Positions 19,823 to 51,440 are shown, counted from the first letter of the stretch. The stretch is 64,000 nucleotides of DNA from an uncultured Actinomycetes bacterium (GCA_937863385.1 CALMBW010000018.1:124001-188000), one strand, 5' to 3'. Notes: a model not told the origin generated them from the letters alone. A program made the numbers and translations.

Positions 19823-20743
19823 TCACTCAGCAAACCCGATATGGAGATGGTCGCCGTGGTCCGCGTCTGTAAACCCGCCCGGGAATGACAGATCTCCAAA
19901 GGGATGACCGAGTTCGTCAGGGCGCAAGACGCCATCGATCGTCGCTAGGTCTTGCACGATCGAACGCGCCGCCCAGTTCGACTTGCTGACCGGCACGCCA
20001 TCCACGATCGAGATGTCGGCGGCCCGCCCGTAATAGTGGTGCGAGACCCGCCCCGACCTCGTGTACTTGCTGTGCCCGGTCTTAAGCACGCCGACCGTGA
20101 TGGTGTGACGCTGCGAGATCCAGCTCAGCAAAGAGACCACCCGCGCATCTACGATTCCGTGCTCGATGTCGTATCGGGCATAAGAGCTCAAGATGACATT
20201 GGGACTGGTCAGCAGATCATTCGTGGATGCATAGGCAGCACCACCGGGCACCGAGAGCACGCCATAGCTAGCGGCGAGCATGAGAACCTCATCCACGTAT
20301 TCCGTGGAGTGGTTGTAGTTCCACACTGCGTCCGCAAGGCGGGACCGGTCCCCCGCTCCGTTGGCACAGAGCAGGTTCGTGGCGCTGAAGACGGAGTCCA
20401 CGACACCGTTGATCTCTGTCCTGCCGTCACCGTTGCCGTCTACTCCATAGGCCGAAAACGTCGACGGTAAGAACTGCATCGGGCCTTGGGCACCCTTGCT
20501 CGAGATTGCTCGCCCTGTACCGAAACCCGTCTCGAGCTTGTGGATAGCAGCCAGAACCGTCCAATCGAGTCCCGGGCAGGTCTCAGCAGCGGCTTGATAA
20601 AGCGGGATCAACTCAGAAGGGATATCGGTGCGTGCCTTATCCGATGGACTGAGCTCACCGCCAGCTGTGAACACCACCAATGCCATCAAAGGCAGCAAGA
20701 AGATCGACAGACACAGAACAACCAAGAGTTTGGCGAATTTCAT
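19823..20743 (-). CDS. Secreted lytic transglycosylase with C-terminal LAS-type peptidase-like domain
   Basis: 306 residues with an N-terminal signal/anchor segment (LLVVLCLSIFLLPLMALVV). An SLT domain follows: the catalytic Glu in IHKLETGFG, then GAQGPMQFLPSTF. The C-terminal part (SHHYYGRAADISI ... GDHLHIGF) has the H...D...HxH spacing of LAS/M15 D,D-carboxypeptidase-like folds. It would open peptidoglycan for the conjugation channel. It is the last gene of the transfer operon; its start overlaps the VirD4 stop by 4 bp. Confidence 0.88.
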   Translation of the reverse strand: MKFAKLLVVLCLSIFLLPLMALVVFTAGGELSPSDKARTDIPSELIPLYQAAAETCPGLDWTVLAAIHKLETGFGTGRAISSKGAQGPMQFLPSTFSAYGVDGNGDGRTEINGVVDSVFSATNLLCANGAGDRSRLADAVWNYNHSTEYVDEVLMLAASYGVLSVPGGAAYASTNDLLTSPNVILSSYARYDIEHGIVDARVVSLLSWISQRHTITVGVLKTGHSKYTRSGRVSHHYYGRAADISIVDGVPVSKSNWAARSIVQDLATIDGVLRPDELGHPFGDLSFPGGFTDADHGDHLHIGFAE

Positions 20744-22392
20744 CGATCGAGCTTCGACATCTGAAACCAGGGTCTCAATTGCAACCGAGCGGGCGGGAGA
20801 TGTCCATAGACCAAGACACCTTCACCGGGCCGGATGCCACGAAGCACATGAGCCGGGGCAAGACTACGCATGCCGGTGGATTCAGTGGTGGACGTGGAGC
20901 CGCGACTCCCACGAGTCACAGACGCCTGCAGTATCTCTTCATCCCCAAGCAGAAGCGACGCGTATTCCAGCGTCGCGTTGTCTGATACCCCCGACAGGAC
21001 AATCTTGGCTCGATGATTGTTCACCACGGTCTGAGCTCGATCGCCGTAACGCGCCGACACTTGGGCCAGATCTTGAAAGACGCTGACCAGTTGGATGCCA
21101 TGGCCGGCGGCGGTTGATGCCAACGAGTCGAGATCGCGCAACGGTGCGATGTTGGCCGCTTCATCAAGCACAACGAGTAGGGGCTTCTCCAGCTCGCCCC
21201 CGTTCGCCGAAGCCCGCTCGAACGCGGCGCTCAAGATCGTATGAAGCAAAGTTTCGAACAGCGGTCGAAGCCGACGTTGTTCATGTGATGGAGCAGTCAC
21301 GTAAAGGGTTGCATCGGAATTCAACAGAGCCTCGGGAGAGATATCGCAGCGCTCCGCGGAGCGGGCTACTTCGGGATCCTCGTAAGCGGCAAGCACGGTC
21401 TCTGCGGTTGTGTAGACCGAACTTCGCTGTCGATTATCACGCCGGAAGGACGCCATCGCTGCGTCGAGAGCCGCCCCCTCGCCCGCAGCGGTGAGTGCCT
21501 CGATGACTTGCTTCTCCTCCTGAAGGTTGACCCAGCGCACGACGTCCGACATGGTGCGTTCGCTATTGGAAGCGGCTAGCAACAGCGGTGCCAGTAGCTT
21601 GGCCGCTGCGGCATACCAGAAGTCGGCATCGGCGAGTCCTGTGGATCTCGAGGTCGTCGCGCCGGTCAGCCATGAGGCGGTGCGCTGCGCTCCGTGCCAG
21701 TCCTTGCACGACATCAGTGGAGACCAATGGTGTCGATCAAGCCCGGTACATGCGGTGGGGTCATACACGAACACCTCGCCCCGCTCCCGACGAGTTGATT
21801 CCGTATGACGGACGAGGTCGGTCTTGACACTGGTGGCCAGGACCGGACCCTGCCATTCCAAGATCGCAGGGATAGCGAAACCACTGGTCTTCATGGATTG
21901 TGTTGGGCCGAGAACGATCACGCTCTGGCGCTTCTCGGCGGCAACGAGGTCGCGTCCCACTCGACCGAGAGTGAGCCTGCCGGGCACAGGGCGCTTGACG
22001 ATCAGGGCACCAAGATCACGCCGGGTTGCCCACGAAGACGAGCGTTCCGATCTCGGCGCGTCATACAGCCCAATGAGACGTTTGACGAGCAAGGCGGTCA
22101 GAGCCACCAACGTCACCAGCGTCGAGTAATACGCCAGCGGACCTGGGATGAAGGCGCGCTGGGGCTTCGGCCACGCGGCAGCCGGGTCAAAGGGGCTCTT
22201 GACCAATCGAACGACGATCTCGCCAATCTCTGCGAAGGTGACGCGCGGTCGTCCCCCAGCGAACAATAGGCCTGCCAGCTCTCCCGCGGCCCACACGAGC
22301 ACACCGATGAGCAGCAGGCCGGCCACAGAAACGACGGCGAGGTTCTCCAGCCCGGATGGGCGAGGTGCTCGAGCTGGAACCGAAGCGCTCAC
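20740..22392 (-). CDS. VirD4/TraG-type coupling protein ATPase
   Basis: 550 residues. Two N-terminal membrane segments (about 20-45 and 90-110) are followed by a TraG/TraD ATPase with Walker A-like GPTQSMKT, where the usual GxGKT is GPTQSMKT, and Walker B LLVVLDEAANIAPL. TraM-binding-type C-terminal sequences follow. Coupling proteins hand the relaxase-DNA complex to the type IV channel. Four-bp overlaps on both sides place it in the single minus-strand transfer operon. Confidence 0.9.
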   Translation of the reverse strand: MSASVPARAPRPSGLENLAVVSVAGLLLIGVLVWAAGELAGLLFAGGRPRVTFAEIGEIVVRLVKSPFDPAAAWPKPQRAFIPGPLAYYSTLVTLVALTALLVKRLIGLYDAPRSERSSSWATRRDLGALIVKRPVPGRLTLGRVGRDLVAAEKRQSVIVLGPTQSMKTSGFAIPAILEWQGPVLATSVKTDLVRHTESTRRERGEVFVYDPTACTGLDRHHWSPLMSCKDWHGAQRTASWLTGATTSRSTGLADADFWYAAAAKLLAPLLLAASNSERTMSDVVRWVNLQEEKQVIEALTAAGEGAALDAAMASFRRDNRQRSSVYTTAETVLAAYEDPEVARSAERCDISPEALLNSDATLYVTAPSHEQRRLRPLFETLLHTILSAAFERASANGGELEKPLLVVLDEAANIAPLRDLDSLASTAAGHGIQLVSVFQDLAQVSARYGDRAQTVVNNHRAKIVLSGVSDNATLEYASLLLGDEEILQASVTRGSRGSTSTTESTGMRSLAPAHVLRGIRPGEGVLVYGHLPPARLQLRPWFQMSKLDR

Positions 22393-35465: not shown

Positions 35466-35630
35466 CGTCTCGACAAAACGTTCGAGTTGTAACGCCCATG
35501 TTTATTGCCGGAGGGCTGTGGACGATCTCGCCCGATTCAGTCGGCCCCTGCGCGGGCTACTCCTCAGCACACCTCTTGGTGGGGCGGTAGGTAACGGCTC
35601 GGGCTTGCCCTACCGCCTGAACAGCACCAT

Positions 35631-35654
35631 GGAGCCCGGCCGAAGCCGGGCTCC
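35631..35654 (-). terminator. UUCG-loop hairpin terminator after ssb
   Basis: Perfect 10-bp stem GGAGCCCGGC / GCCGGGCTCC whose minus-strand loop is TTCG, an extra-stable tetraloop. It begins 20 bp after the minus-strand ssb stop. There is no T-tract, and it reads as a hairpin on both strands. Confidence 0.7.
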
Positions 35655-35674
35655 ATTTAGCTGGGTAGCTGGTG

Positions 35675-36061
35675 CTACCCGGTGGTCTCGGCCGGGACCG
35701 GGGAGGCGTCGGCCGAGGGCTTGGTGATCTGAACCGTGGCGAACTGAAGATCTGCTGCCACGTTAGAGGCTTGGATCTCGACCGAGTGGCGCTTGTTGCC
35801 GTCTTCGGTCTGCCAGCTGCGCTGGATCAGCTTGCCGGTGACAACAACCCGTGCGCCCTTCTTGAGGGACTCAGCGACGTTGTTGGCGAGACCGTTCCAG
35901 GCGGTGACGGAAAAGAAGCCGTCGGTGATGTCCTGCCACTGGCCCTTGCTCTTGCTGCGGTGACTGACCGCCACGGTCAGGTTGGCGACCGCCTTGCCGG
36001 ACTGGGTGTAGCGCAGCGTTGGGTCCTCGGTGAGGTTCCCGACTAGAGCTACCTGGTTCAT
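35675..36061 (-). CDS. ssb: Single-stranded DNA-binding protein (second of three)
   Basis: 128 residues. The OB-fold opening MNQVALVGNLTEDPTLRYTQSGKAVANL and GARVVVTGKLIQRSW are standard for SSB. The C-terminal tail is short and lacks an acidic PF tip. It closely resembles the SSB at 44816 (both begin MNQVALVGN) and less so the plus-strand SSB, so the minus-strand pair are probably paralogues. It points toward the putative oriT and has hairpin A 78 bp upstream, the layout expected for a leading-region early gene. Confidence 0.93.
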   Translation of the reverse strand: MNQVALVGNLTEDPTLRYTQSGKAVANLTVAVSHRSKSKGQWQDITDGFFSVTAWNGLANNVAESLKKGARVVVTGKLIQRSWQTEDGNKRHSVEIQASNVAADLQFATVQITKPSADASPVPAETTG

Positions 36062-36138
36062 GTGCTTCTCCTTTTCCCGACGCCTACGGCGTCTTAGCCG
36101 TTCTTACGGCCCGTGCTTCAGGGCGGAGATAGCGACGA

Positions 36139-36198
36139 GGTCAACCGGCAGCGGAGCTGGTCCGAGCACTCATGAGCGCGCAGGGCTCACGGTTTACC
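36139..36198 (-). promoter_or_regulatory. Leading-region stem-loop, copy A (putative single-strand promoter)
   Basis: A 9-bp stem with one mismatch: GGTCAACCG (36139-36147) with CGGTTTACC (36190-36198) encloses a 42-nt loop. The loop contains the family core at 36163-36183, identical over 21 nt to copies B and D. Downstream on the plus strand is the family motif GGAGCGACCGTCCTA (36202-36216). It lies 78 bp upstream of ssb. Confidence 0.6.
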
Positions 36199-36274
36199 GA
36201 AGGAGCGACCGTCCTAATGTGCCGAGTAAGAGAACGGCCTGCAGCAGATAAGGGAGAAGCGATAACGTGAGCCC

Positions 36275-36793
36275 ATGTCGAAATCAGAGCCGACCCTCGA
36301 TCCAGAACGGGCCAAGATCGTGGAAGAGCTAAAGAAGTTGGGCGTGACCGGGATCATGATCACCCTCGCCGAGCAGGGCGAGATATCGAAAGTGGAATGT
36401 GCAGCGGAAGAGAACTGTCTGTGCCCCGATGAACTCGGGGGTGGTACGCACTTCGACACGATCCCCGAACCAATATCCGATTGGATCCCTACGCAGGATC
36501 ACATCACTCTCAAGAGTGAAGGCGGGAAACTGACGGTCGACAACGTCCAACTCATGCATCGGTTATGCAACAGGGTCCGCTATACCGGCGAGCCCGGCAA
36601 GAAAGACATCAAACGCATCCAAGCCGCCCGGGCAGCCGCGCTGATCGGTCCGCGCTTCTCCATCATCAAGGATGACGTAGAAGTGGATACGGCCACCGAC
36701 TACGAGCAAGCATTAGGGATCGCTGAGGAGCACGTCGCTACGATCCGTGACAACACGACCGGAGCCGTCATCACTTTCCCGGAACGCCACTAG
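36275..36793 (+). CDS. HNH-type endonuclease-like protein
   Basis: 172 residues. A Cys pair (CLCPDEL) precedes PTQDHITLKSEGGKLTVDNVQLMHRLCN. The D-H, then N, then H/CN pattern is that of HNH/beta-beta-alpha-metal nucleases. The C-terminal part is charged and helical. There is no partner gene on this strand; it stands alone between minus-strand operons. Possible roles are a homing-type or restriction-type nuclease. The call rests on the motif alone. Confidence 0.6.
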   Translation: MSKSEPTLDPERAKIVEELKKLGVTGIMITLAEQGEISKVECAAEENCLCPDELGGGTHFDTIPEPISDWIPTQDHITLKSEGGKLTVDNVQLMHRLCNRVRYTGEPGKKDIKRIQAARAAALIGPRFSIIKDDVEVDTATDYEQALGIAEEHVATIRDNTTGAVITFPERH

Positions 36794-38146: not shown

Positions 38147-38566
38147 CTAACGTCTCCTCGACGACTTTCTCCTGGTCGCCTTTCTCGCTGCGGGCTTCCT
38201 TCTCGTCGACTTCCTTGCTGGCGGAGTTGGAGGCCTCGCCGGAACCTTCGCTTTCTTCCGTGCGGTGCTTTTCCGACCCGTGGACTTCTTCCGGGCGGTC
38301 GTTTTCTTTGCGGTGCTCTTGCGACCCGGGGACTTCTTCCGACCGGTCGTTTTCTTTGCGGTGCTCTTGCGACCCGTGGTCTTCTTCCGGCCGGTCGTCT
38401 TCCGAGCGGTGCTCTTGCGACCCGTGGTCTTCTTCCGGCCGGTCGTCTTCCGAGCAGTGCTCTTGCGATCCGTGGTCTTCTTCCGTGCCGTGGACTTACG
38501 AGCCGCTGGCTTACGCGTCGTCCTCCGTGCAGAAGACTTTCTACCCGATATTTTCTTCGCAGCCAC
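38147..38566 (-). CDS. Lys/Arg-rich histone H1-like repetitive protein
   Basis: 139 residues from GTG 38564-38566, behind GGGAGGGCG. Almost the whole protein is KS-T-A-R-K-T-T-G-R-K-type repeats of 16 residues, very basic with Ser/Thr/Ala/Gly as the only fillers. This composition resembles the tails of H1-like nucleoid proteins such as AlgP, Hc1 or the mycobacterial HupB tail, which bind DNA non-specifically. It sits 66 bp after the prim-pol in the same direction. It may compact or protect the incoming element DNA. Confidence 0.75.
   Translation of the reverse strand: MAAKKISGRKSSARRTTRKPAARKSTARKKTTDRKSTARKTTGRKKTTGRKSTARKTTGRKKTTGRKSTAKKTTGRKKSPGRKSTAKKTTARKKSTGRKSTARKKAKVPARPPTPPARKSTRRKPAARKATRRKSSRRR
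38263..38502. repeat. 48-bp tandem repeat inside the H1-like gene
   Basis: Five consecutive 48-bp units starting CGGTGC. Units three and four are identical; the rest differ by a few bases. Each encodes 16 residues, so the repeat number can change without a frameshift. Confidence 0.85.
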
Positions 38567-38632
38567 TAGATCGCCCTCCCCACTGTCGGTCGATAGCGAT
38601 TGAACCATCCGCCGGACTCCTCGCACAAGCCG

Positions 38633-39532
38633 TCACCGCGCACTCCTAAGTCTCAAACTCTCGGTCAAAGGAGAGCCTGTTACACCCACTCGACGCACAG
38701 CCTCGAAAGCGCTGTCGATGGTGCGGGTGGTTTCCCAGTCGGTCAGGCCGATCGACAGAGCAACGCGGACGAGTTCGGCTCGGGCTGTGGGGTCTAGCAG
38801 ATGGCCGGCAGCGATGAGCTTGCCGATGATGAACGCGCAGCGGTTGAGGGTGTGGTTGCGCTCCCCCACTTTGGCGGCTCGCAGGATGTCGAGTTGGTTG
38901 CGCAGGACCTTGAGTCCGTAAGGTGTGCCGTCGCCGGTGAAAGGACCTGCTGGTGGTGCGATCGGAACCAACCGGCGCGGCGATTCACGGAGCCACTCGG
39001 GTGCCTCGGCGATCGGGATCTCGCCATCGAGCCACGAGTAACTGTTGCCCGATAGGTGCCGGCTCGGTGGTGCCACGATGTAGCCACCGTCGGCGCGCAG
39101 ATCGATCCCGGGCAGGGATCCTGAGATGCCGGGCAAGCCGCTTGTGTGATTGCGAAGTGAAGAGTCTGCAGCGCGCCTATATATAAGGTGTAACCCGCCG
39201 CCTCCGGTGAGCCCTGCGAGTGTCCTTGGTAGCTTGTGAATCACGCGGTCTAGCGATGCGAACGCTCTCGGTAGATCGATATCGACCACCACGATGCCTG
39301 CCCGCTCCCCCGTCGTGACTGCGACGTTCGCGTTGGGCCACTGCCGCCACCAGGTCTTGATACGAGCGATGTTGGTCACCGCTTCGTGAAGGCCGCGGCG
39401 GACCAGCGGATGCTTGCCGGGCGAGGAGCAGTCACGGCCACAGGTACAGGTGCTGTTGACGATGCCGTGCAGCGGAAACACCGGCCAGCCTCGTTGGGCG
39501 TATCCGACAGCCGCCCACAACATCTCGTTCAC
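38633..39532 (-). CDS. Bifunctional DNA primase/polymerase (prim-pol)
   Basis: 299 residues, GTG start at 39530-39532 overlapping the previous stop. The prim-pol N-terminal domain is clear: YAQRGWPVFPLHG, a Cys-rich CTCGRDCSSPGKHP, VVVDIDLP (catalytic Asp pair) and TGGGGLHLIYR. It can synthesise primers and extend them. A helicase domain is missing, so it is the short mobile-element form. In a leading region it would prime second-strand synthesis in the recipient. It belongs to the operon downstream of hairpin B. Confidence 0.9.
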   Translation of the reverse strand: MNEMLWAAVGYAQRGWPVFPLHGIVNSTCTCGRDCSSPGKHPLVRRGLHEAVTNIARIKTWWRQWPNANVAVTTGERAGIVVVDIDLPRAFASLDRVIHKLPRTLAGLTGGGGLHLIYRRAADSSLRNHTSGLPGISGSLPGIDLRADGGYIVAPPSRHLSGNSYSWLDGEIPIAEAPEWLRESPRRLVPIAPPAGPFTGDGTPYGLKVLRNQLDILRAAKVGERNHTLNRCAFIIGKLIAAGHLLDPTARAELVRVALSIGLTDWETTRTIDSAFEAVRRVGVTGSPLTESLRLRSAR

Positions 39533-39699
39533 GATCCCAGCTCCTCGAGATAGGTGTCACAGCGCTCGGTCAACTCGGCTGCGAGTTCGGAAGCCCTGTC
39601 GAAACCATCATCGGCGAGACGGTCACGCAGACCGGCCAAGGTAGAAGCGAGAAGAACGACGACCAGGTTGCCTAGGTCTACAGGTGCCGGCTCGCTCAT
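39529..39699 (-). CDS. 56-residue helical protein, translationally coupled
   Basis: ATG 39697-39699 overlaps the upstream stop (ATGA), and its TGA 39529-39531 overlaps the prim-pol GTG. The product (MSEPAPVDLGNLVVVLLAST, then an amphipathic acidic helix ending YLEELGS) has no known family. Double coupling makes it real with good confidence despite its size. It may be an adaptor for the prim-pol. Confidence 0.75.
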   Translation of the reverse strand: MSEPAPVDLGNLVVVLLASTLAGLRDRLADDGFDRASELAAELTERCDTYLEELGS

Positions 39700-40175
39700 G
39701 ACGCAGCCTTTCCTGCAAGCTCGAAGGCGTTGTCGTGGAAGCGCTTGAGCATCTCGGCTGTGCTGCGGTCGTCCGCACTGCCGACGTCACCGCAGCGGGA
39801 ACAGATGATCTCGAAGTGGCCGTCCTCGGGAACCACGAAGGCCTTGTGCGGCTCTACCACAACTTTCTCGATGGTCCACTTGTCTGCCAGAGTGGCTACG
39901 AAAGCCTCGTGAAGTCTGCTTATCGCTTTGGCTTCGATGCGGTTATCGGCTGCACCGACCAGGCCGCAGCGTTCGCATTCGATCTCGAAACGGTTGTCGT
40001 TACCGGCCAGTTCACCGGGAGGGTCATAGATAGTGCAGCTGTGGATTCCATCGACGGCCTCGCCGTCGGGGGCCTGGTCGCCGAACGCAAGCTCCAGCTC
40101 CTCGTCCTCTATGAGATCGAGTTCGTTCCACTCGTCGGTGGGAAACGCTGCCTCGTAGCCGATGGTCTCTTCCAC
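39696..40175 (-). CDS. Protein with two tandem CxxC zinc-finger-like repeats
   Basis: 159 residues. An acidic N-terminus (about 1-55) is followed by two homologous units, RFEIECERCGLVGAADNR...RLHEAF and HFEIICSRCGDVGSADDR...RFHDNAF. Each unit has CxxC and a later His that could complete a zinc site. It is the first gene after hairpin B, 63 bp away, and heads the operon with the 56-residue protein, prim-pol and H1-like gene. No named family is recognised. An early ssDNA-related or regulatory protein is a reasonable guess. Confidence 0.7.
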   Translation of the reverse strand: MEETIGYEAAFPTDEWNELDLIEDEELELAFGDQAPDGEAVDGIHSCTIYDPPGELAGNDNRFEIECERCGLVGAADNRIEAKAISRLHEAFVATLADKWTIEKVVVEPHKAFVVPEDGHFEIICSRCGDVGSADDRSTAEMLKRFHDNAFELAGKAAS

Positions 40176-40237: not shown

Positions 40238-40292
40238 GTCAACCGATGCCGAAGGCAAGCGAGCACTCATGAGCGCGCAGCGTGCGATTGAC
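40238..40292 (-). promoter_or_regulatory. Leading-region stem-loop, copy B (putative single-strand promoter)
   Basis: Stem GTCAACCG (40238-40245) with CGATTGAC (40285-40292), one mismatch, around a 39-nt loop. Positions 40258-40286 are identical over 29 nt to 45306-45334 in copy D, although the outer stem bases differ and still pair. The downstream family motif GGAGCGGCCGGTGCTA is at 40296-40311. It lies 63 bp upstream of the zinc-finger-like gene. Confidence 0.65.
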
Positions 40293-40432
40293 GCCGGAGC
40301 GGCCGGTGCTAGACAAAGCCACGCCGTCGGCCGGGAGGCTTGGAAGGTCGCTTACGTGGCGGTCATCGGGCCGGACAGTCGGCCGCACCGGGTCAGGTTC
40401 ACAAACATGGCTGCTTGAGCATGCAGGAACTG

Positions 40433-40876: not shown

Positions 40877-40967
40877 AGAGTGAAGGTTACGGTTCGCAAC
40901 CAAAGATCCGCGACGGTCCCAAATCCAAAAGCAGCTGAGAGGATTTCCTAACGGATGTTTGCAACTC

Positions 40968-41783
40968 ATGCCTGACGAAGATTCAACAGCAGCAGAAGAG
41001 ATCATCGATATCGGTGCGGAGATTGCTGGCGGTGTCGCCGGATCCGCTGCTGGGCTCCTCGTTGCAGGTCCGGGAGGCGCACTGGCCGGCGCGGCCGGGG
41101 CGCCACTCGCGATCCGCGCGTTGCGGTGGGCGGGCCGTGAGGCTCGTGAGCGAGTTCTTTCCCGGAGAGAGCAAGTGCGCGCGGGCGGAGCCCTGGCGTT
41201 CGCTGCTGATGAGATCCGAACGAGGCTCGAAAGCGGAGACGTATTGAGGAACGACGGCTTCTTCAAAGAAGAGGTCGCACCGGGACGTACCGCGGCCCAG
41301 GAGATCCTCGAAGGCACTCTCATGACTGCCGAACGTTCGTACGAGGAAAAGAAAGTTCCGTACTTGGGGAGGCTCTACGCTAGCATCGGCTTCGACGAGA
41401 CGGTCGATGCGGCGGGGGCCAACTACCTGCTGAACATCGGCGCCACCTTGACTTGGATGCAGTTCGTGATCCTCTCCGTGATCGCGCATAACTTCGAAGG
41501 TCAGCTTCGATTGCGCGAATCGATGTTCGAAGGAGACGACCAGCCCATGGAGCTCGTGGCTGTAGCTCATCAGATGCTTAACCTTGCTCAGCGAGGTTTC
41601 CTGTTTCAGAAGCGACCCGGTCAGGACAACTCCGAGATCATCCTGGACGCTCCTCACATCGCGCCTCAACACCTGAAGATCCAAGGCTTCGGGTATCAGT
41701 TCTGGCGCCTCGCGAAACTTGGAGACATGCCTTCAAAGGACTGGCTCCCCATGGCGGTCATGCTGGGGAGCTCGTCCGGGTAG
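40968..41783 (+). CDS. Hypothetical protein with glycine-zipper N-terminus
   Basis: 271 residues from ATG 40968. Residues about 12-45 form an Ala/Gly-rich hydrophobic zipper (IGAEIAGGVAGSAAGLLVAG, then GGALAGAAGAPLAI) that could insert in a membrane. The rest is helical with conserved-looking VPYLGRLYASIGFDE and NLAQRGFLFQ. No family is recognised. Membrane-inserting zippers occur in several abortive-infection effectors, but there is no partner sensor here. It is cargo in the B-C cassette. Confidence 0.55.
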   Translation: MPDEDSTAAEEIIDIGAEIAGGVAGSAAGLLVAGPGGALAGAAGAPLAIRALRWAGREARERVLSRREQVRAGGALAFAADEIRTRLESGDVLRNDGFFKEEVAPGRTAAQEILEGTLMTAERSYEEKKVPYLGRLYASIGFDETVDAAGANYLLNIGATLTWMQFVILSVIAHNFEGQLRLRESMFEGDDQPMELVAVAHQMLNLAQRGFLFQKRPGQDNSEIILDAPHIAPQHLKIQGFGYQFWRLAKLGDMPSKDWLPMAVMLGSSSG

Positions 41784-41790
41784 GGCGCCC

Positions 41791-41842
41791 TTGACGCCGG
41801 AGCGGCCGGTGCTAGATGAAAGTCCAGCCGTCGACCGGGAGG
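41791..41842. repeat. Partial copy C of the leading-region repeat
   Basis: Positions 41791-41816 are identical to 40288-40313 in copy B over 26 nt. A second match, CCGTCG.CCGGGAGG, lies at 41828-41842 versus 40324-40338. The hairpin half is absent. B and C are direct repeats around the NUDIX/glycine-zipper cassette. Confidence 0.75.
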
Positions 41843-41861
41843 ACGCCGATGCAGCCGAGCG

Positions 41862-43484
41862 TTACGTGACGCGGAAGATCGATATGAGGGTCTTGACCAC
41901 GGGACGGGTTCTGATGATCTCCTCCTCATCGCGTTCGCGGAGGTCCTTAAGGATGCGGTCGGCCATCAGGGGTGCCAGCTCGGTCTTCGACACGTTCACG
42001 CTTCCGAACTGCGGCAATGCAGCCAGCTTCGTTGCGAAGGTCGCAAGACCTTTCGATTTCCTTCCCGCTCTGTCCCGATGCTCCTCGAAGCTAGAGCGAA
42101 GGGTCTCCGCGTCAAGCGTGAGACTCGCGCCCCTCTCTGTTGCGAGAGCCTCGATCATCTCGATCAGCTCGGCGTCAGAGAAATTCGCCTCCTCGAAACT
42201 GGTATCCCAGAGCTGAACGGCCTCTTCAGTAAGAATGCCCTCGGAGATCAGGCGCTCGACCTCACGTTCCATATCGCCTTCTCGGTCGGCGACCAGCACC
42301 AAGAACCGAGGGAAAGTCTTGACGGCGCGCAGGGCCTCCTTTCGGAGCTTCCCGACGCCTTCGAGCTCCTGGACGCTTACGCCCATATCGTTCAAGGGCA
42401 TGCCGCCAATCTCCTCTAGCACCCGTCTGCAGACTGCATGTTCCGTGGCACCTTCAACGACCAGATGAACCTCATGGGGGTTCAGCTGCCGAATCCGAAG
42501 CTCCACCGCAAGGTCAGCACGGGTGTAGCGCTCGAGCGGCCATCGACCGAACAGTTTCTTCTTCCAGGACTTGTCGGACACGTCGAAGATCTCATCGGGA
42601 GCGAGCAACAGCTCGCCCGTGACATCACGGTAGAAGCGCCGGAGCATCAGCGCGGCGTCGTAGGCATCGTGTGCTCGCCGCGCCTCCCCGCGTAACCGCG
42701 CCCGCTGCTTTGCCGGCGCCATCCGGAAGAGCATGTACCAATTGCGAACCGGATCGAAACCGTGGGTCTTCGTTGCCAAGCGCTCGTACATGTTCTTGAT
42801 CGACTCCGCGCCTACGCCGAGCTCTGAAAGGATCGAGGAGGGGTCCCATGGTGGCTCAAGTGCCCGGGGGTCCACGAAGTCGTTGACGGAATCGTCGTAG
42901 ATCAGGCTGACCGTCGCCTTCGTTAGCGTGCCCTTGATTGACGGTCCATATATCCCCTGCAAGCGGAAGAGCATCAGCATCAGGTCGTGCCACGACCCGT
43001 CTAATTGCCGCCACTGCGCGATCTGACGCTCGTACCAGTGCCGCATGGTCGTATGGGCCGACGCTCTCTTCTCATCGTCCAGCAGCCACTCGATATTCAC
43101 TTCGGCCTTGTCGAGCCGGAGCGCGTCCCGGAGGTAGAGCAGTTGCCACGGGGAGTAAAGCGGATGAGCGCGGGGTGTTTCGCGCATCCCGTCGTCAAAG
43201 GCGAGGTCCTGCCATGGAACGAAGCCTTGTTCCTCGCGGAAGACGACTTCGTCCCCGTCGAACAGGAGAGGGCTGAACGCGCCTTCGCGGTCCAACCGCT
43301 CAAGTTCCTCGTAAGGGTCGATGGGAATACGCAAACCGCGCTCCTCAGCCTCTCGCCGCAACCGAACGCGATCGAGCAGAGGGAACTGGTGAAAGGCGTC
43401 CGCTTCGTATGCCCGGCGGACGGTGTACGCCGCGACGGGTGGGGCATCCGGGGTAGTAGCTCGTTGCTCGATCTGTTTCTCCAT
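41862..43484 (-). CDS. TOPRIM-domain protein (OLD-like), partner of a PIN-like gene
   Basis: 540 residues from ATG 43482-43484, one base after the upstream stop. Residues 1-330 are helical and unassigned. Residues about 338-480 look like a solo OLD-type TOPRIM: Glu344 in LVVEGATEH and Asp400/Glu402 in VLVADREGDM, the E...DxE/DxD metal site, followed by WDTSFEEANF, a segment seen after TOPRIM in OLD-like nucleases. No ATPase domain is attached. It is tightly paired with the PIN-like gene and lies downstream of ssb and hairpin D. It is probably a nuclease in a defence or anti-defence unit. Confidence 0.65.
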   Translation of the reverse strand: MEKQIEQRATTPDAPPVAAYTVRRAYEADAFHQFPLLDRVRLRREAEERGLRIPIDPYEELERLDREGAFSPLLFDGDEVVFREEQGFVPWQDLAFDDGMRETPRAHPLYSPWQLLYLRDALRLDKAEVNIEWLLDDEKRASAHTTMRHWYERQIAQWRQLDGSWHDLMLMLFRLQGIYGPSIKGTLTKATVSLIYDDSVNDFVDPRALEPPWDPSSILSELGVGAESIKNMYERLATKTHGFDPVRNWYMLFRMAPAKQRARLRGEARRAHDAYDAALMLRRFYRDVTGELLLAPDEIFDVSDKSWKKKLFGRWPLERYTRADLAVELRIRQLNPHEVHLVVEGATEHAVCRRVLEEIGGMPLNDMGVSVQELEGVGKLRKEALRAVKTFPRFLVLVADREGDMEREVERLISEGILTEEAVQLWDTSFEEANFSDAELIEMIEALATERGASLTLDAETLRSSFEEHRDRAGRKSKGLATFATKLAALPQFGSVNVSKTELAPLMADRILKDLRERDEEEIIRTRPVVKTLISIFRVT

Positions 43485-43485
43485 G

Positions 43486-44724
43486 TCAGGACCCACCCGC
43501 GCCGGGCTCTGCCTCGGGGGGCACCATCCGCCACCGGCCCCTGCGGATCGGCATGTTTTTGGTGAAGAACGTGTAGTCGGGTTCGCGAGCGGCAGCGGGT
43601 CTAAGGACCGGGACCGCATTGTCTGCGACGTCACGGACATCTGCGGCGGTCATAGAGTCGGGCGGTAGCTCCGCATCGTCTTTCGGCTCATAGTGCGGTG
43701 CCGCGTCGCGCCATCCCGGCCGAAACTCGTCCCACATGGCCGTTAGTGCGTTATCGAGCTCGCTCGGAGGACGTCGAGCAAAGCGCACTATGCCCATTTC
43801 CTCGATCTCCCCCATGTGCTCCTCGCCGTACACCACCATTTCCTTCAGAGCAGCCTTCAAGTCACGCCCATCCACGAAGCGCTGATCGGGCCCGAGGAAG
43901 AACGGAGCCACAGTGCGGTGGAGCTTGTCGGTCGAAGTGAAGACCTGGCAGAAAGGCAAGTAGTAGAGGTAAGCGACATCAACCATATTGCTCTTACGTT
44001 CCCGTCCGATGAGATTAGAGGCCATCCCAAGGTAGAAGAAGAGCGAGGCCCTGAGTACGTACGCGGTGTAGGGAGCGAATACCTCAAGGGAGAGGTCTCC
44101 CGCGGCAGCGTAGCGAGCCGCGATTTGGTCTGTCCACTGCGGGCCGATACCAAGGAAGCGTCGAGCGAACTCCACGCGTTCGATCCCTGTGCCTGCGACG
44201 TAGTCGGAAGCGATCTCATACACCTCATCAAGCGTCTTGCCGCGTGCGACCTTGGTCGCATAGCGCGCTTCCTCGATCATCGAGCGAAAGTCGACGTTGC
44301 TGAGGGTGTCTCGCCAGCTGACGGCTACGGCCCGCTCAAGCTCATGGAATCGACCCTCGTGCCAGCGGGCGAGTGCAGCCACCTCGTCGAACTCATCGAA
44401 GTGATGCCCGAGCTTCCCGTCCGGGCTGCGCTTCGGCTCTCCCCCGACCACCAAAACCTGGCCGTTCATCGGAGGGTGGTTCCCATGAACCAGGTCGTTG
44501 CCGATCAAATTCAGATGAAAAAGGTTGGGCCACGTGTGGAGGATCGGCGATTTCCCCGCGATATCGGCCACCACAGCCTCTGCGGCTCTGCGCTTACTTG
44601 GCTTGCTCAGGTCCGCGAGGGTCTCGACGAAGAACACTGGCGTGATGTTGAACATGAAGAAGGCTTCCAACCAGACGGCCTCGTCCAGGCTCAGCCCCTG
44701 CAGTGCCGACTTGTCGAAGATCAT
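43486..44724 (-). CDS. PIN-like nuclease-domain protein
   Basis: 412 residues if started at ATG 44722-44724, chosen because GGAGGG lies about 9 nt upstream; a TTG start 27 bp earlier is possible. It begins MIFDKSALQGL, with the acidic residue in the first strand, and then ITPVFFVETLADL with further acidic residues, a pattern like PIN-domain metal-dependent RNases. The remaining 350 residues (GRFHELERAVAVSWRDTL, SLFFYLGMASNLIGR) are unassigned. It is coupled to the TOPRIM gene. The PIN call rests on the N-terminal 50 residues. Confidence 0.55.
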   Translation of the reverse strand: MIFDKSALQGLSLDEAVWLEAFFMFNITPVFFVETLADLSKPSKRRAAEAVVADIAGKSPILHTWPNLFHLNLIGNDLVHGNHPPMNGQVLVVGGEPKRSPDGKLGHHFDEFDEVAALARWHEGRFHELERAVAVSWRDTLSNVDFRSMIEEARYATKVARGKTLDEVYEIASDYVAGTGIERVEFARRFLGIGPQWTDQIAARYAAAGDLSLEVFAPYTAYVLRASLFFYLGMASNLIGRERKSNMVDVAYLYYLPFCQVFTSTDKLHRTVAPFFLGPDQRFVDGRDLKAALKEMVVYGEEHMGEIEEMGIVRFARRPPSELDNALTAMWDEFRPGWRDAAPHYEPKDDAELPPDSMTAADVRDVADNAVPVLRPAAAREPDYTFFTKNMPIRRGRWRMVPPEAEPGAGGS

Positions 44725-44815
44725 CACGGGACCCATCCCTCCAGTCTCCAATGCCGGTGTGACACATGTCGAAGCCCTGCCGAAGCCGGGCTCCGCACTT
44801 GCCGGGTAGTGAGGG

Positions 44816-45199
44816 TTACCCGGCGGCCGCCGCAGGGGCCAGAGAACCCTCTACGGTGGACTTCGCTACCTCTGCGGTAGCGAACTGAAGATCCGGTCCC
44901 ACGTGGGTGACCTGGATCTCGACGGTCTGGCGCTTCTGACCCTCGACCTCGAAGGTGCGCTGGACCAGCTTGCCGACGACCATGACCCGCATGCCCTTCT
45001 TGAGGGTGCGGCTCGCGTTCTCGGCGACGCTGCGCCATGCCGTGCAGCGGAAAAACCCGTCGGTGACGTCCTGCCACTCTTCGTTGTGCTTTGAGCGGTG
45101 GCTGACCGCGACGGTGAAGCCTGCGAGGGCCGCGCCACTCTGGGTGTAGCGAAGCTCGGGATCGTCGGTGATGTTTCCGACTAGAGCGACCTGATTCAT
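44816..45199 (-). CDS. ssb: Single-stranded DNA-binding protein (third of three)
   Basis: 127 residues from ATG 45197-45199. The SSB fold is clear (MNQVALVGNITDDPELRYTQSGAALAGFTVAVSHR, MRVMVVGKLVQRTFE). The tail is Ala-rich and ends AAAAG without an acidic tip. It is 91 bp upstream of the PIN-like gene in the same direction, so ssb, PIN-like and TOPRIM likely form one operon behind hairpin D, 86 bp upstream. Confidence 0.93.
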   Translation of the reverse strand: MNQVALVGNITDDPELRYTQSGAALAGFTVAVSHRSKHNEEWQDVTDGFFRCTAWRSVAENASRTLKKGMRVMVVGKLVQRTFEVEGQKRQTVEIQVTHVGPDLQFATAEVAKSTVEGSLAPAAAAG

Positions 45200-45284
45200 C
45201 ACTACCTCTCTTTCCTGGGCGCTTGTTGGCTGCGCCCGAAGCCGTTCCGACGCCACCGGAACAAGTCCGCGACCGAACGACGGA

Positions 45285-45341
45285 ACGCAACCGACGATGA
45301 AGTGGAGCGAGCACTCATGAGCGCGCAGCGTGCGGTTGCGT
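45285..45341 (-). promoter_or_regulatory. Leading-region stem-loop, copy D (putative single-strand promoter)
   Basis: Perfect 9-bp stem ACGCAACCG (45285-45293) / CGGTTGCGT (45333-45341) around a 39-nt loop, the same loop length as copy B. The 29-nt core at 45306-45334 is identical to B. Stem bases differ from B at several positions yet keep pairing. It lies 86 bp upstream of ssb. Confidence 0.68.
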
Positions 45342-45449
45342 GGAGGAGTTAGCGGACTACGGTTGCGTCAGAAGGAATGGCTGTCTCGGCGCGTAGCAGC
45401 GACCAGAGAGGTGACGAACAAGCGCGAGGGTCTAATCACGCCGGGCGGG

Positions 45450-46328
45450 CTACGCGTCTCGGTCAGCGTCCGTCGTCGCAACCGTTGATGGCGATGCGGT
45501 CCAGCTCCCGAGCAGGTCCAACGCCTCATGCGACGGTGAGTTCGGCTCGGCCACGTACACGAAAATCGTCAGACCCGGATCACCAGGAGGCTCCAGCGCC
45601 TCGTAAGTAAGCGTCAAGTCCCCGACGACCGGATGATGGAAATGCTTGATGCCGCTGCGGTGGAAGCGGACCTCGTGACGTGCCCAGAGCCTTCTGAATT
45701 CTTCGCTACGCGTGGACAGCTCTCCGATCAAGTCTGTAAGAGCACGGTCGTACGGGTCCCGGCCCGCCTGTGCGCGCAAGAGGGCAACGACGTCGTTAGC
45801 GACCGTGTCCCACTGCTTGTAGAAGTCAGTGGCCCGCGGGTTCAGAAAGATTGTCCGGGCTCCGTTCGCCGCATTGCCGGGGTCGCCGAAGAATTCAGAG
45901 AAGAGAGCGCGCCCGAGGCTGTTCGCGTAGAGGATGTCGAGACGCCCGTTCTGAACGAAAGCCGGGACGGTCATTGAATCGAGGAGGCGTTGAAGACTCG
46001 GGCGCACGCGCTGCTGCGTTGGAGGCCGCTTGGGGCTGCGACCTGCATTGGCGGCCCTCACCAGATCGAGCAGGTGAGCACTTTCCGCCTCGTCCAGCTG
46101 GAGCGCTCGTGCGATCCCGTCTAGCACGCTCTCGGAGACCCCACGCGCATTGCCGCGCTCGAGGCGTGTGTAGTACTCGACGCTGATGCCCGCGAGCAGA
46201 GCGACCTCCTCGCGACGGAGCCCGGGTACCCGGCGCTTCCCTCCATACGCCGGAAGGCCTGCTTGCTCTGGCCCGATCCGCCCTCTCCGCGTGACGAGGA
46301 ACTCGCGGATGTCATCACTCATGTCCAT
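45450..46328 (-). CDS. XRE-family regulator with MmyB-like ligand domain
   Basis: 292 residues from ATG 46326-46328; a start at 46322 is also possible, and neither has a good ribosome-binding site. The N-terminal helix-turn-helix is GLRREEVALLAGISVEYYTRLERG, followed by the MmyB-like ligand-binding fold (DSMTVPAFVQNGRLDILYANSLGRALF). These one-component regulators usually control a divergent enzyme gene. Here that is the alpha/beta hydrolase, with the shared promoter in 46329-46466. Confidence 0.9.
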   Translation of the reverse strand: MDMSDDIREFLVTRRGRIGPEQAGLPAYGGKRRVPGLRREEVALLAGISVEYYTRLERGNARGVSESVLDGIARALQLDEAESAHLLDLVRAANAGRSPKRPPTQQRVRPSLQRLLDSMTVPAFVQNGRLDILYANSLGRALFSEFFGDPGNAANGARTIFLNPRATDFYKQWDTVANDVVALLRAQAGRDPYDRALTDLIGELSTRSEEFRRLWARHEVRFHRSGIKHFHHPVVGDLTLTYEALEPPGDPGLTIFVYVAEPNSPSHEALDLLGSWTASPSTVATTDADRDA

Positions 46329-48588: not shown

Positions 48589-48630
48589 GAGAACGACCGA
48601 GTGTCGGTTCTCACGCGCAGCGTGCGGTTG
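48589..48630. repeat. Partial, divergent copy E of the leading-region repeat
   Basis: CGCGCAGCGTGCGGTTG at 48614-48630 matches copy D, and GGAGCGGCGGGCCTA follows at 48637-48651. The outer stem is lost, but a local dyad (GAGAAC...GTTCTC, 48589-48612) is present. No minus-strand gene starts beyond it. Copies D and E flank the regulator-hydrolase-dehydrogenase cassette. Confidence 0.6.
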
Positions 48631-48700
48631 AACGAAGGAGCGGCGGGCCTAGCTTTACGTCGTCGCAGAACGACAGCCGGTGGGCCCGGAACGGTGAGCA

Positions 48701-50509
48701 TCAGGTCGCGTCTGGAAAGACCTCCGAAGAGACGCCGGCTTCCCCGAGATAGCGAGACCTCTGGCGATAGGGACCCGGTGCCTGTGCACCTGAGCCGGCA
48801 TAGCCGGTCGAATGAAAGTAGCGGTAATTGACGTGAAGCATGTACAGGAAGTGTCGAGCCCGTGTCATCGAGACGTACACAAGACGTCTCTCTTCGCTGA
48901 GATCCTCTGCATTCCCCGGCACGATGTCGTCATCCAAATCCGTCACGATGACCACCCCTGCAGTCAAGCCCTTCGCTTTACGAAATGTCGTCACGCGGAC
49001 AATACTGGGAGCTGCTTCGGGAAGGGTGGCAGTCTCTTGGTCCTGCGCTTCGAGTTCCTCTACAGCAGTATCTGGAGGCTTATCTTCCACATGTAGGCCT
49101 TCTGCAAGGACACGCAATCGCTCTGTGGACGCGCTTGATACCGCCTCCGTCGCGGTCAACTCCTCGAGTACTTGCTCGAAGGAATCCTTGTCGCCCACAC
49201 GAGTGGCCAAGTCCTCCAATGCTTGCAAAGAGCTCTTGATCGCTGTGGACCCAACTGAGCGACATCCCTCTGCGAACGAGACATGCGTTGACAGACAATG
49301 GTCGATGACTGTCGCGACGGCAGCTGGCCCGATCCCAGAGGCACACCTAAGCCATCCGCGAACAGCAATGGCGTCCTTGGGGTTTCCCGCGTACCGAATG
49401 GCGTACATCACGCGACGGCTTTCGCACTCGTCCAATACCTGTTCGGGCTGTGCCAAGTTGACCGCTGCCAGTCCCCTCGCGTCGAGCTCCTCCACATATT
49501 GTCTAGCAAAGCTGCGGCGTGGAACGAGGACAAGAATGTCGCCCAAATCCACCCCGCTCGCATGTCGAGCGACGAGGTCAGCGACCACCTTCACTGATTG
49601 CTGCGGACTATTTAGCGCGTAGACGTGAATCTCACCGTCCTCGTTCACGGGCGTCAACGCTTTCTCGATGCGGCCAGCGGGTTCGTGAGAGATAAGTTCC
49701 ATCGCTGCGTCGAGAATCGGACGCCCGCAGCGATAGCACTCTTCAAGGACGTAATCAGCCGCACCGGGATAGTCCTCATCAAACTTGCGAATCCCTGTCG
49801 GGTCCGCCTGTCGGAAACGATAGATACATTGATCATCGTCACCAGCGATGAACGGGTCGATCCCGCGTCTGCTCGCAAGCTCACGAATGACGCTTAAATC
49901 GCAAGCATTGAGGTCCTGATACTCATCAACCAGTAAGAAATCAAACTCCGGCATAAACGCCGGGTCGCCGTCAAGAAGCTTCTTGAGCTTGTAAACTAAC
50001 TCGCCCAACATCGCGAAGTGGAAGACGCTACGAAGTTTTTCCAGCCACCCCTCAAAGGCGGCGCGCCACGGAGCGGCAGGAGGCTGCTCCAGCGTTCTCC
50101 AGGCGGCGTCGTACTCCTTTAGGAGTCCTCCCACCTGAGCCGGTGTCCGCTGCACTCTCCTCGCCAAATCTGGGCACAGCAGTTCCCGCTGCTCCCATTC
50201 ATCGACGGTCTCAGCCCCAACGAACTCTTGTCCGCTCCGCGTCCGAAGAATCTCGAAAGCGTACGAATGCAGAGTCCGGACTTGCGGCGGTCCAGGCAGT
50301 GGTGGGTCGAGTCTCGAAAACCGCTCTGAAAGATCCAGAGCGGTTGCCACGCTGAAGGTGAGAACAAGGATTCGGTTCGGTTCTATGCCCTTGTTGCGAA
50401 CGAGGTGCTCAATCCGACCGATAATCGCGGTTGTCTTCCCGGTTCCAGGACCGGCCAAGAGTCGTGCCGGACCGGTCTCATGGGAGATCGCGTCACTCTG
50501 TCCCGTCAT
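48701..50509 (-). CDS. UvrD/Rep-type SF1 DNA helicase
   Basis: 602 residues. Motifs: Walker A AGPGTGKTTAIIGR, motif Ia LVLTFSVATALDLSERF, Walker B FLLVDEYQDLN, motif III FIAGDDDQCIYRFR and motif VI RLVYVSMTRARHFLYML. A 3'-5' helicase of this size acts on ssDNA-dsDNA junctions. It lacks an AddA/RecB-type nuclease domain. It overlaps the ArdC gene by 17 bp, so the two are one operon behind hairpin F. It could support establishment of the incoming strand or be part of a defence pair. Confidence 0.92.
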   Translation of the reverse strand: MTGQSDAISHETGPARLLAGPGTGKTTAIIGRIEHLVRNKGIEPNRILVLTFSVATALDLSERFSRLDPPLPGPPQVRTLHSYAFEILRTRSGQEFVGAETVDEWEQRELLCPDLARRVQRTPAQVGGLLKEYDAAWRTLEQPPAAPWRAAFEGWLEKLRSVFHFAMLGELVYKLKKLLDGDPAFMPEFDFLLVDEYQDLNACDLSVIRELASRRGIDPFIAGDDDQCIYRFRQADPTGIRKFDEDYPGAADYVLEECYRCGRPILDAAMELISHEPAGRIEKALTPVNEDGEIHVYALNSPQQSVKVVADLVARHASGVDLGDILVLVPRRSFARQYVEELDARGLAAVNLAQPEQVLDECESRRVMYAIRYAGNPKDAIAVRGWLRCASGIGPAAVATVIDHCLSTHVSFAEGCRSVGSTAIKSSLQALEDLATRVGDKDSFEQVLEELTATEAVSSASTERLRVLAEGLHVEDKPPDTAVEELEAQDQETATLPEAAPSIVRVTTFRKAKGLTAGVVIVTDLDDDIVPGNAEDLSEERRLVYVSMTRARHFLYMLHVNYRYFHSTGYAGSGAQAPGPYRQRSRYLGEAGVSSEVFPDAT

Positions 50510-51365
50510 CCTTTGATATTGGCACGCCCCTGCGACACGAGAGGCTCTCTTCGTGGGCCAATCCCTTGAGAATGGCCTTGGCGCAGCCGATTGAGCGCTC
50601 CGCCGTCTCCTTGACCAACTCGGCCGAGCCCTCGGCCCAGCGGGCGATGTAGGCGAAGCTGTAGTTACTGGTGTCTAGGCCCAGGGTGTCGCAGACGATG
50701 AAGACGACCGATTCGACCTCGACCTCGGCGATGGCTGCGGTCTTGGGTCGAATCTCACTGTGCAGCAGCGCGTGGGCTAGCTCGTGGATCAGGGTCTTGA
50801 CGGCTTGAGCGGGAGCGACATCGGGTCGGACCGCGATCTTCTTTCCCAGAAAGTCGCAGTAGCCGTTCTCGCTGCCCTCCTGGGTCCGGATCACTTCGAA
50901 ACCGGCATCGTTGGCCTGAGAAACAAGCACTTCCCAGACGCCTTCGGGGGCATCGCCGTCCAACAGCTTCGGCCGAACTGCGTCGAGATCCTCGAGAGAT
51001 TCGCCATCGGTCTGTGAGATGTCGAAGACGTGCACGACTCGGAAGCCACGTATCTGTTGCATCGTCTTCTCGTCGCCATTGTCGGTCTCGATCTTCGTCT
51101 TGTACTTGCAGGGGGCGAAGATGGCGATGCCCTTCTCGCCTTTCTTCACGAAGCGACCGAGTGATTTCCAGCGGTTGAAGCCAGCGACGTGAGTTGCGTC
51201 GGGACGCTGCAGGAAGATCATCAGCTGGTTGTTGAAGCTGTAGTTGTGGAACTTGGAGGCAACCTTCAACATCCTTTGCCAGTCATCGCCGGAGACGATG
51301 GATTCGACGGCCTGTGTGAGCCGGTCATGGGCCTCCTTGAGCTTGTCGGTTTTGGTCTGAGTCAT
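50493..51365 (-). CDS. ardC: ArdC-type anti-restriction protein with zincin domain
   Basis: 290 residues from ATG 51363-51365, after CTAGGAGGTACGAC. The ArdC N-terminal ssDNA-binding domain (NYSFNNQLMIFLQRPDATHVAGFNRWKSLGRFVKKGEKGIAIFAP) is followed by an ImmA/IrrE-like metallopeptidase with LIHELAHALLH (HExxH). ArdC binds ssDNA and protects incoming plasmid DNA from restriction. It is a classic leading-region gene and reads back toward oriT. It is first in an operon with the UvrD-like helicase. Confidence 0.9.
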   Translation of the reverse strand: MTQTKTDKLKEAHDRLTQAVESIVSGDDWQRMLKVASKFHNYSFNNQLMIFLQRPDATHVAGFNRWKSLGRFVKKGEKGIAIFAPCKYKTKIETDNGDEKTMQQIRGFRVVHVFDISQTDGESLEDLDAVRPKLLDGDAPEGVWEVLVSQANDAGFEVIRTQEGSENGYCDFLGKKIAVRPDVAPAQAVKTLIHELAHALLHSEIRPKTAAIAEVEVESVVFIVCDTLGLDTSNYSFAYIARWAEGSAELVKETAERSIGCAKAILKGLAHEESLSCRRGVPISKDDGTE

Positions 51366-51440
51366 GTCGTACCTCCTAGGTCGGCGGCTTTCCGACATGA
51401 GGCACAGCGACGCTTCATAGCGAGCGGGTCACAAGGGTGA

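What the first reader, a model, noticed from the sequence alone, without database searches (positions are those of the whole stretch)
41862..45199. ssb - PIN-like - TOPRIM operon: possible undescribed defence or anti-defence pair
A 412-residue protein with a PIN-like N-terminus is followed, one base later, by a 540-residue protein with a solo OLD-type TOPRIM site (Glu344, Asp400/Glu402). Both lie downstream of an ssb gene behind hairpin D. Two predicted metal-dependent nucleases in a coupled pair, expressed from the leading region, do not match a defence system I can name. They could eliminate competing plasmids or phage, or disable a recipient system.
Basis: partly seen in the sequence, partly recalled or inferred. 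Interest (0 to 1): 0.68.

Follow-up and report, generated by a model that had tools for sequence, protein, structure and literature searches.

The report
Two unpaired defence-linked nuclease genes
A conjugative element in a small bacterial genome carries, behind a DNA-binding gene, two predicted nucleases of undescribed families; each recurs elsewhere beside other anti-phage genes but never with the other, so this is a one-off pairing of two mix-and-match defence parts rather than a new two-gene system.

Summary
The second carries a complete class-2-OLD-type Toprim nuclease site (E344, E348, D400, E402, S429, E431, K500) but no ATPase motif; Foldseek ranks solved OLD C-terminal regions first. 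The first belongs to a widespread undescribed family (19 further loci, many phyla); its invariant D8/E38/D42/D253/D270 and confident AlphaFold model read like a PIN domain with a ~190-residue insertion, but Foldseek, Pfam and profile comparison do not confirm PIN. Instead each sits beside varying defence genes: PIN-like with type I/III restriction, GmrSD and pAgo; Toprim with SIR2 (PDC-S65), PDC-M54A and DUF1016. They lie in a MOBF element's apparent leading region, but a hairpin shared with a second ssb closes the ssb unit before them. Most likely: two independently mobile accessory defence nucleases carried as cargo. Anti-defence and functional pairing remain possible.

The parts
44816..45199 (-). 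ssb (second copy), 127 aa single-stranded DNA-binding protein
   Evidence: PF00436 E=3.8e-29, TIGR00621 over cut-off; 73% DNA identity over 184 nt to a second copy at 35675-36061
45309..45338 (-). Repeated element 110 bp upstream of this ssb; copies at 40261-40290 and (shorter) 36158-36183, each upstream of a minus-strand gene
   Evidence: expected 0.00 in shuffles for the 30-mer. Role as (single-strand) promoter is inference
44773..44794 (-). Hairpin AGCCCGGCTTCGGCAGGGCT after ssb; nearly the same hairpin follows the other ssb (35633-35654); no T run. Probably ends or processes the ssb transcript, so the ssb-PIN-Toprim 'operon' is uncertain
   Evidence: similarity between the two ssb units ends just after it
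43486..44736 (-). PIN-like family protein, 416 aa, undescribed family
   Evidence: AlphaFold model pLDDT 88.4, pTM 0.87
44602..44736 (-). First half of the putative PIN core: strand, D8-K9-S10, helices, strand, helix with E38 and D42
   Evidence: invariant in 16 sequences; strand/helix order
43867..43992 (-). Second half of the putative PIN core: helix with D253, strand, S268/D270, H273, strand
   Evidence: invariant in 16 sequences
41862..43484 (-). ATPase-less OLD-type Toprim nuclease, 540 aa, starts 1 bp after the stop of the PIN-like gene
42135..42473 (-). Toprim domain, about residues 338-450, with E344, E348, G376, D400, E402, S429, E431
   Evidence: residue roles in Burkholderia OLD from PMC6755086
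35675..36061 (-). First ssb copy of the element, related upstream repeat and downstream hairpin
29803..32304 (-). TrwC/MOBF relaxase of the conjugative element
   Evidence: PF08751 E=1.6e-82
20740..22392 (-). Type IV coupling protein
   Evidence: PF02534 E=2.4e-42
50493..51398 (-). ArdC N-terminal-domain protein (anti-restriction family), upstream of a UvrD-like helicase at 48701-50509(-)
   Evidence: PF08401 E=6.4e-14, PF00580 E=6e-37

Best explanation
The cassette holds two independently mobile accessory defence nucleases that met in one conjugative element. Shown: both are members of families with conserved putative active sites; the two families have different partners everywhere else; many of those partners are restriction, GmrSD, pAgo, SIR2 or PADLOC candidate defence genes. 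Inferred: each protein is normally silent and is switched on when an invader, or a counter-defence protein of an invader, disturbs the cell; the Toprim protein then nicks or cuts nucleic acid by two-metal catalysis as OLD (DNA) or AriB (tRNA) do, and the PIN-like protein cuts RNA as PIN toxins do. They would thus act as backup effectors, comparable in role to PrrC beside type I restriction or AriB in PARIS, and as cargo that guards the element and its host from phages and rival elements.
For: Complete class-2-OLD catalytic set conserved in the Toprim family: E344/E348/D400/E402/E431/K500 invariant in 7 of 7, S429 S or T in 5 of 7 (roles from PMC6755086); Foldseek to OLD Toprim regions and PARIS. 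PIN-like family invariants D8, E38, D42, D253, D270 and a high-confidence model with PIN-like order of elements. PIN-like gene directly next to defence genes: 2 bp after hsdR (L016), 50 bp after type III res (L020), 67 bp after GmrSD (L015), between hsdS and hsdR and overlapping a class II pAgo by 4 bp (L021). GmrSD within 10 kb in 3 of 12 cellular loci against 0.04 expected (Poisson 1.3e-5) and in 2 of 5 viral contigs. Toprim relatives 106 bp before a SIR2 gene of PADLOC candidate PDC-S65 (L006), 95 bp before PDC-M54A (L043), 42 bp before DUF1016 (L044). Patchy spread across phyla. Backup nucleases of these superfamilies beside BREX are described (PMC12839542).
Against: No defence activity is shown for either family and neither is in PADLOC. 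Several PIN-like loci (L010, L011, L012, L013, L014) have no recognised defence neighbour touching the gene. PIN fold unconfirmed. The leading-region position next to ssb and ArdC fits anti-defence equally well. The 1-bp spacing could mean that the two proteins work together here.
Confidence: 0.5

Rival explanations
1. Anti-defence: the pair is expressed early from the leading region on entry and disables a recipient defence (for example by degrading a defence RNA), alongside SSB and ArdC.
For: Relaxase at 29803-32304, two ssb copies, ArdC, and the pair all on the minus strand; the leading region of conjugative elements is rich in anti-defence genes, SSBs and toxin-antitoxin genes coded on the transferred strand (PMC11541004); a PIN-like relative lies beside a TrwC relaxase in another element (L046) and a broken one on a MOBF plasmid.
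Against: Several relatives are beside or inside restriction operons rather than in conjugative leading regions, where an anti-restriction role makes little sense (L016, L020, L021). oriT was not located. The Toprim relatives found have no recognised conjugation genes next to them.
Confidence: 0.17
2. The two proteins form one working complex (a new two-gene system) that happens to be rare: Toprim as one effector, PIN-like as partner.
For: 1-bp spacing, same strand; the window Toprim protein lacks a stretch present in most relatives near its N-terminus, which could reflect a changed partner.
Against: The pair was found nowhere else, although each family was found repeatedly without the other.
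Confidence: 0.18
3. Toxin-antitoxin or addiction module of the element.
For: PIN is the classic VapC toxin fold (general knowledge); toxin-antitoxin genes occur in leading regions on the transferred strand (PMC11541004).
Against: No small antitoxin gene beside it; P0001 is not among the PF01850 (PIN) matches listed for its own genome, ten in all; both proteins look enzymatic.
Confidence: 0.08
4. Unrelated genes in an ordinary housekeeping or DNA-repair role for the element.
For: Toprim and PIN-like nucleases also serve in replication and RNA processing (general knowledge); neighbours include ssb and a Prim-Pol gene.
Against: Patchy distribution and defence-gene neighbourhoods of both families.
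Confidence: 0.07

Closest known systems
Class 2 OLD nucleases (Burkholderia and Xanthomonas OLD; PMC6755086)
   Same: Toprim plus helical C-terminal region with equivalents of E400/E404/D455/D457/T506/E508/K562 at E344/E348/D400/E402/S429/E431/K500
   Different: No Walker A motif or ATPase domain in any of seven members; DxE instead of DxD; unrelated N-terminal half
AriB of PARIS (stand-alone Toprim tRNase)
   Same: Toprim effector separate from an ATPase; Foldseek match to the PARIS complex (8ux9_A, prob. 0.99)
   Different: No AriA-like ATPase next to it in the window; Toprim at the C-terminus of a longer protein; AriB membership not tested with a specific model
Gabija GajA/GajB
   Same: OLD-type Toprim; weak GajA model matches mostly confined to the Toprim
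   Different: ATPase domain absent; the UvrD-like helicase in the window (48701-50509) is 5 kb away and sits behind ArdC, not adjacent
VapC/PIN-domain RNases
   Same: Invariant acidic residues at the expected places (after strand 1, in the helix after strand 2, in the helix before and just after the next strand; D253-D270 spacing 17)
   Different: About 190-residue insertion in the core; no sequence, profile or Foldseek match to PIN
PrrC anticodon nuclease linked to type I restriction (PMC2610378)
   Same: A putative RNase gene embedded among hsd genes (L021) or directly after hsdR (L016)
   Different: PrrC has an ABC ATPase part and is not PIN-like; no tRNA target is known here

Membership tests
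OLD nuclease family | C-terminal Toprim with conserved Glu and DxD | tested here: met
   E344, D400, E402 (DxE) invariant in seven members; Foldseek to OLD Toprim regions prob. 1.00
OLD nuclease family | Second-metal residues and helical-domain lysine of class 2 OLD | tested here: met
   E348, E431, K500 invariant, S429 S/T in 5 of 7; reference residues from PMC6755086
OLD nuclease family | N-terminal ABC-type ATPase domain | tested here: not met
   No Walker A motif in any of seven members; no ATPase domain in Pfam
Gabija | GajA (ATPase-Toprim) followed by GajB helicase | tested here: not met
   GajA model only E=0.015 for P0002; no helicase next to it
PARIS | AriA ATPase with AriB Toprim | tested here: not met
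   Neighbour is the PIN-like gene; no PARIS model among PADLOC hits of the proteins scanned
PIN domain superfamily | Significant sequence or profile match to a PIN family | tested here: not met
   Pfam on 16 members and on 10 cores with the insertion removed: none; profile-profile with 20 PIN proteins P about 0.6; not among the PF01850 matches in its own genome
PIN domain superfamily | Invariant acidic residues in the PIN order of strands and helices | tested here: met
   D8, E38, D42, D253, D270 invariant in 16 on a model of pLDDT 88
PIN domain superfamily | Structural match to a solved PIN fold | tested here: inconclusive
   Foldseek gives no significant hit (prob. at most 0.10 among those listed) in PDB or BFVD for the whole model; the insertion may break the comparison and the core could not be searched alone
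A conserved PIN-like/Toprim two-gene system | The pair recurs in other genomes | tested here: not met
   0 of 19 other PIN-like loci (20 with the broken plasmid copy) and 0 of 7 Toprim loci

The most novel reading that the evidence does not exclude
The PIN-like family is a new, phylum-spanning class of plug-in suicide RNase that attaches to many unrelated defence operons (type I and III restriction, GmrSD, pAgo, OLD-type Toprim) and fires when the primary system is blocked, a PIN counterpart of PrrC; the Toprim family is a second such plug-in with SIR2 and large-ATPase partners, and the window shows two plug-ins joined.
Probability: 0.25. Interest if true: 0.75.

Novelty: new variant of a known kind. 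Interest (0 to 1): 0.42.

Why it matters
Neither family has a model of its own in Pfam (the Toprim domain aside), NCBIfam or PADLOC, yet both recur beside defence genes in distant phyla. If they are swappable backup nucleases, they would explain why diverse restriction operons carry an extra uncharacterised gene and give a direct test of whether defence systems share interchangeable suicide effectors. As a conserved two-gene system, however, the finding does not hold.

Tried and rejected
Conserved pair: rejected by the survey. Gabija split by insertion (a UvrD-like helicase at 48701-50509): rejected, the Toprim protein has no ATPase part and ArdC, not GajA, precedes the helicase. VapC-type toxin: PF01850 finds ten proteins in the genome, this one not among those listed. 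PIN by Foldseek in PDB and viral libraries: nothing. PIN by hhalign on the whole family and on the core with the insertion removed: P about 0.6-0.9. Pfam on core sequences with the insertion removed: nothing. Scans of viral contigs with P0001, P0002 and the Toprim alignments gave nothing; only the 11-row PIN-like profile found viral relatives. Phage and plasmid records: only a broken PIN-like gene on pACIX905. The Toprim protein's model is of low confidence outside about residues 338-450 and 500-540, so nothing is said about its N-terminal half. Upstream 'hairpins' as single-strand promoters: folds not clearly above shuffles, so left as inference; the sequence repeat is real. No sigma-70-type promoter match at 41700-45700. 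The small ORF L030:12019-12399, suspected by eye to be a SIR2 remnant, had no Pfam match and is not counted.

Full report
Observation. On the minus strand lie ssb (44816-45199), a first long gene and, one base after its stop (43486), a second starting at 43484. The first protein is 416 rather than 412 residues: nearly all relatives begin MGPxxxFDKS, which corresponds to ATG 44736, with GGAGG just upstream. The second is 540 residues. P0001 has no match in Pfam, NCBIfam, PADLOC or PDB sequences. P0002 matches only the OLD-like Toprim model, just below its cut-off, and the GajA model weakly.

Setting. The genome is 2.77 Mb in 27 contigs. The window carries a conjugative element: integrase 15647-16786, coupling protein 20740-22392, TrwC relaxase 29803-32304, two ssb genes, Prim-Pol 38633-39532, ArdC-like 50493-51398 with a UvrD-like helicase 48701-50509; an HsdR-like gene lies at 7494-9911. 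Most genes between the relaxase and ArdC, the pair included, are on the minus strand, as expected of a leading region (PMC11541004), but oriT was not located. The two ssb units are 73% identical over 184 nt, share an upstream repeat and end with nearly the same hairpin, after which similarity stops; a further copy of the upstream repeat stands before the gene at 39696-40175. Because the hairpin belongs to the ssb unit and sits 36 bp before the PIN-like start, a common ssb-PIN-Toprim transcript is uncertain.

The Toprim protein. Profile searches gave relatives in the same phylum (L006, L090), in the phylum of the Acidobacteria bin (L029, L030, L031; 3 of 297 genomes) and in that of the Pseudomonas genome (L043, L044). 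Across seven aligned members, E344, E348, G376, D400, E402, E431 and K500 are invariant, and S429 is S or T in five. These are the counterparts of E400, E404, D455, D457, E508, K562 and T506 of Burkholderia OLD, which bind two metals and drive cleavage (PMC6755086). Foldseek of the model ranks OLD C-terminal regions first and PARIS seventh; the model is trustworthy only at about 338-450 and 500-540. No member has a Walker A motif. So this is an OLD-type nuclease without the OLD ATPase. L006 is followed 106 bp later by a SIR2 gene matching PADLOC candidate PDC-S65 (E=4e-184), L043 95 bp later by PDC-M54A (E=0), L044 42 bp later by DUF1016_N. The L030 copy is split into two ORFs around inserted genes.

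The PIN-like protein. A scan of 84,980 genomes found ten loci in Saccharibacteria, Poribacteria, Acidobacteria, Pseudomonas, Ramlibacter, Methylacidimicrobium, a Micrarchaeota bin and unnamed bacteria; viral contigs gave five; 6 of 297 genomes in the phylum of the Acidobacteria bin carry it, some in broken form; a broken copy lies on the Granulicella MOBF plasmid pACIX905. In 16 aligned members D8, K9, S10, E38, D42, D253, S268, D270 and H273 are invariant. The AlphaFold model is confident (pLDDT 88.4, pTM 0.87) and runs strand-D8, two helices, strand, helix with E38/D42, about 190 residues mostly helical, helix with D253, strand, D270, helix, strand. That is the PIN order with an insertion, but every independent test failed to show PIN: Foldseek in two libraries, Pfam on whole proteins and on cores, profile comparison. 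PIN is therefore an inference.

Neighbours of the PIN-like gene. L016: hsdM-hsdS-hsdR, then 2 bp, PIN-like, then a convergent GmrSD-Schlafen gene. L020: GmrSD-HNH, type III mod and res, 50 bp, PIN-like. L021: hsdM-hsdS, two unknown genes, PIN-like, overlapping by 4 bp a class II pAgo with its Ago-associated gene, then hsdR. L015: GmrSD, 67 bp, PIN-like. L008 and L018: GmrSD within a few kb. L046: next to a TrwC relaxase and coupling protein. In the 12 cellular genomes examined (44.2 Mb) eight over-threshold GmrSD genes exist, three of them within 10 kb of the PIN-like gene; about 0.04 would be expected.

Is the pair a unit? No. The Toprim profile finds nothing in any of 16 genomes or records that carry the PIN-like gene, and profiles of both families run over all fetched loci find both only in the window. 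In the one phylum sampled with both profiles, no genome has both. Some loci are cut at contig ends (L007 has no downstream sequence), so rare pairs elsewhere cannot be excluded.

Mechanism. The steps shown are conservation of the catalytic residues, partner variety and association with defence genes. Inferred are nuclease activity, target and trigger. The nearest precedents are PARIS, where a Toprim protein is activated by an ATPase sensor and cuts tRNA (PMC12409363, PMC12839542), and the backup TOPRIM/OLD, HEPN, PIN and Schlafen effectors next to BREX (PMC12839542). On that model the window carries two such effectors as cargo of a conjugative element. Anti-defence, joint action and addiction stay open as rivals.

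Verdict.

Noticed in passing
L021:4017-15581: A viral contig carries hsdM-hsdS, then a PIN-like gene overlapping by 4 bp a class II pAgo gene and an Ago-associated gene, then hsdR: restriction, pAgo and the PIN-like gene in one co-directional run.
   Followed up: partly
35500-36300 and 44640-45440: Two ssb units, 73% identical over 184 nt, duplicated with an upstream repeat and downstream hairpin inside one element.
   Followed up: partly
36158-36183, 40261-40290, 45309-45338: A 16-30 nt repeated element about 100 bp upstream of three minus-strand genes (two ssb and the gene at 39696-40175); a candidate shared promoter or regulator site of the leading region. Related repeats at 40274-40313, 41777-41816 and 48614-48653.
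   Followed up: partly
48701-51398: ArdC N-terminal-domain/metallopeptidase-like protein overlapping a UvrD-like helicase gene: a possible coupled anti-restriction/helicase pair.
   Followed up: no
40959-41783 (+): A 274-residue plus-strand protein with no Pfam match, convergent with the Toprim gene.
   Followed up: no
38147-38626 (-): Lysine-rich protein made of 48-nt (16-residue) repeats of the RKSTARKTTGRKKTTG type, resembling histone-H1-like or HU-tail repeats.
   Followed up: no
L016:11251-13362: GmrSD_N protein fused to a Schlafen AlbA_2 domain in a Micrarchaeota bin, next to a type I restriction operon.
   Followed up: no
L006:7083-10803 and L043:3883-10856: Toprim relative directly upstream of a SIR2 gene matching PADLOC candidate PDC-S65 (L006), and another upstream of PDC-M54A (L043). 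These look like better candidate two-gene systems than the window pair.
   Followed up: partly
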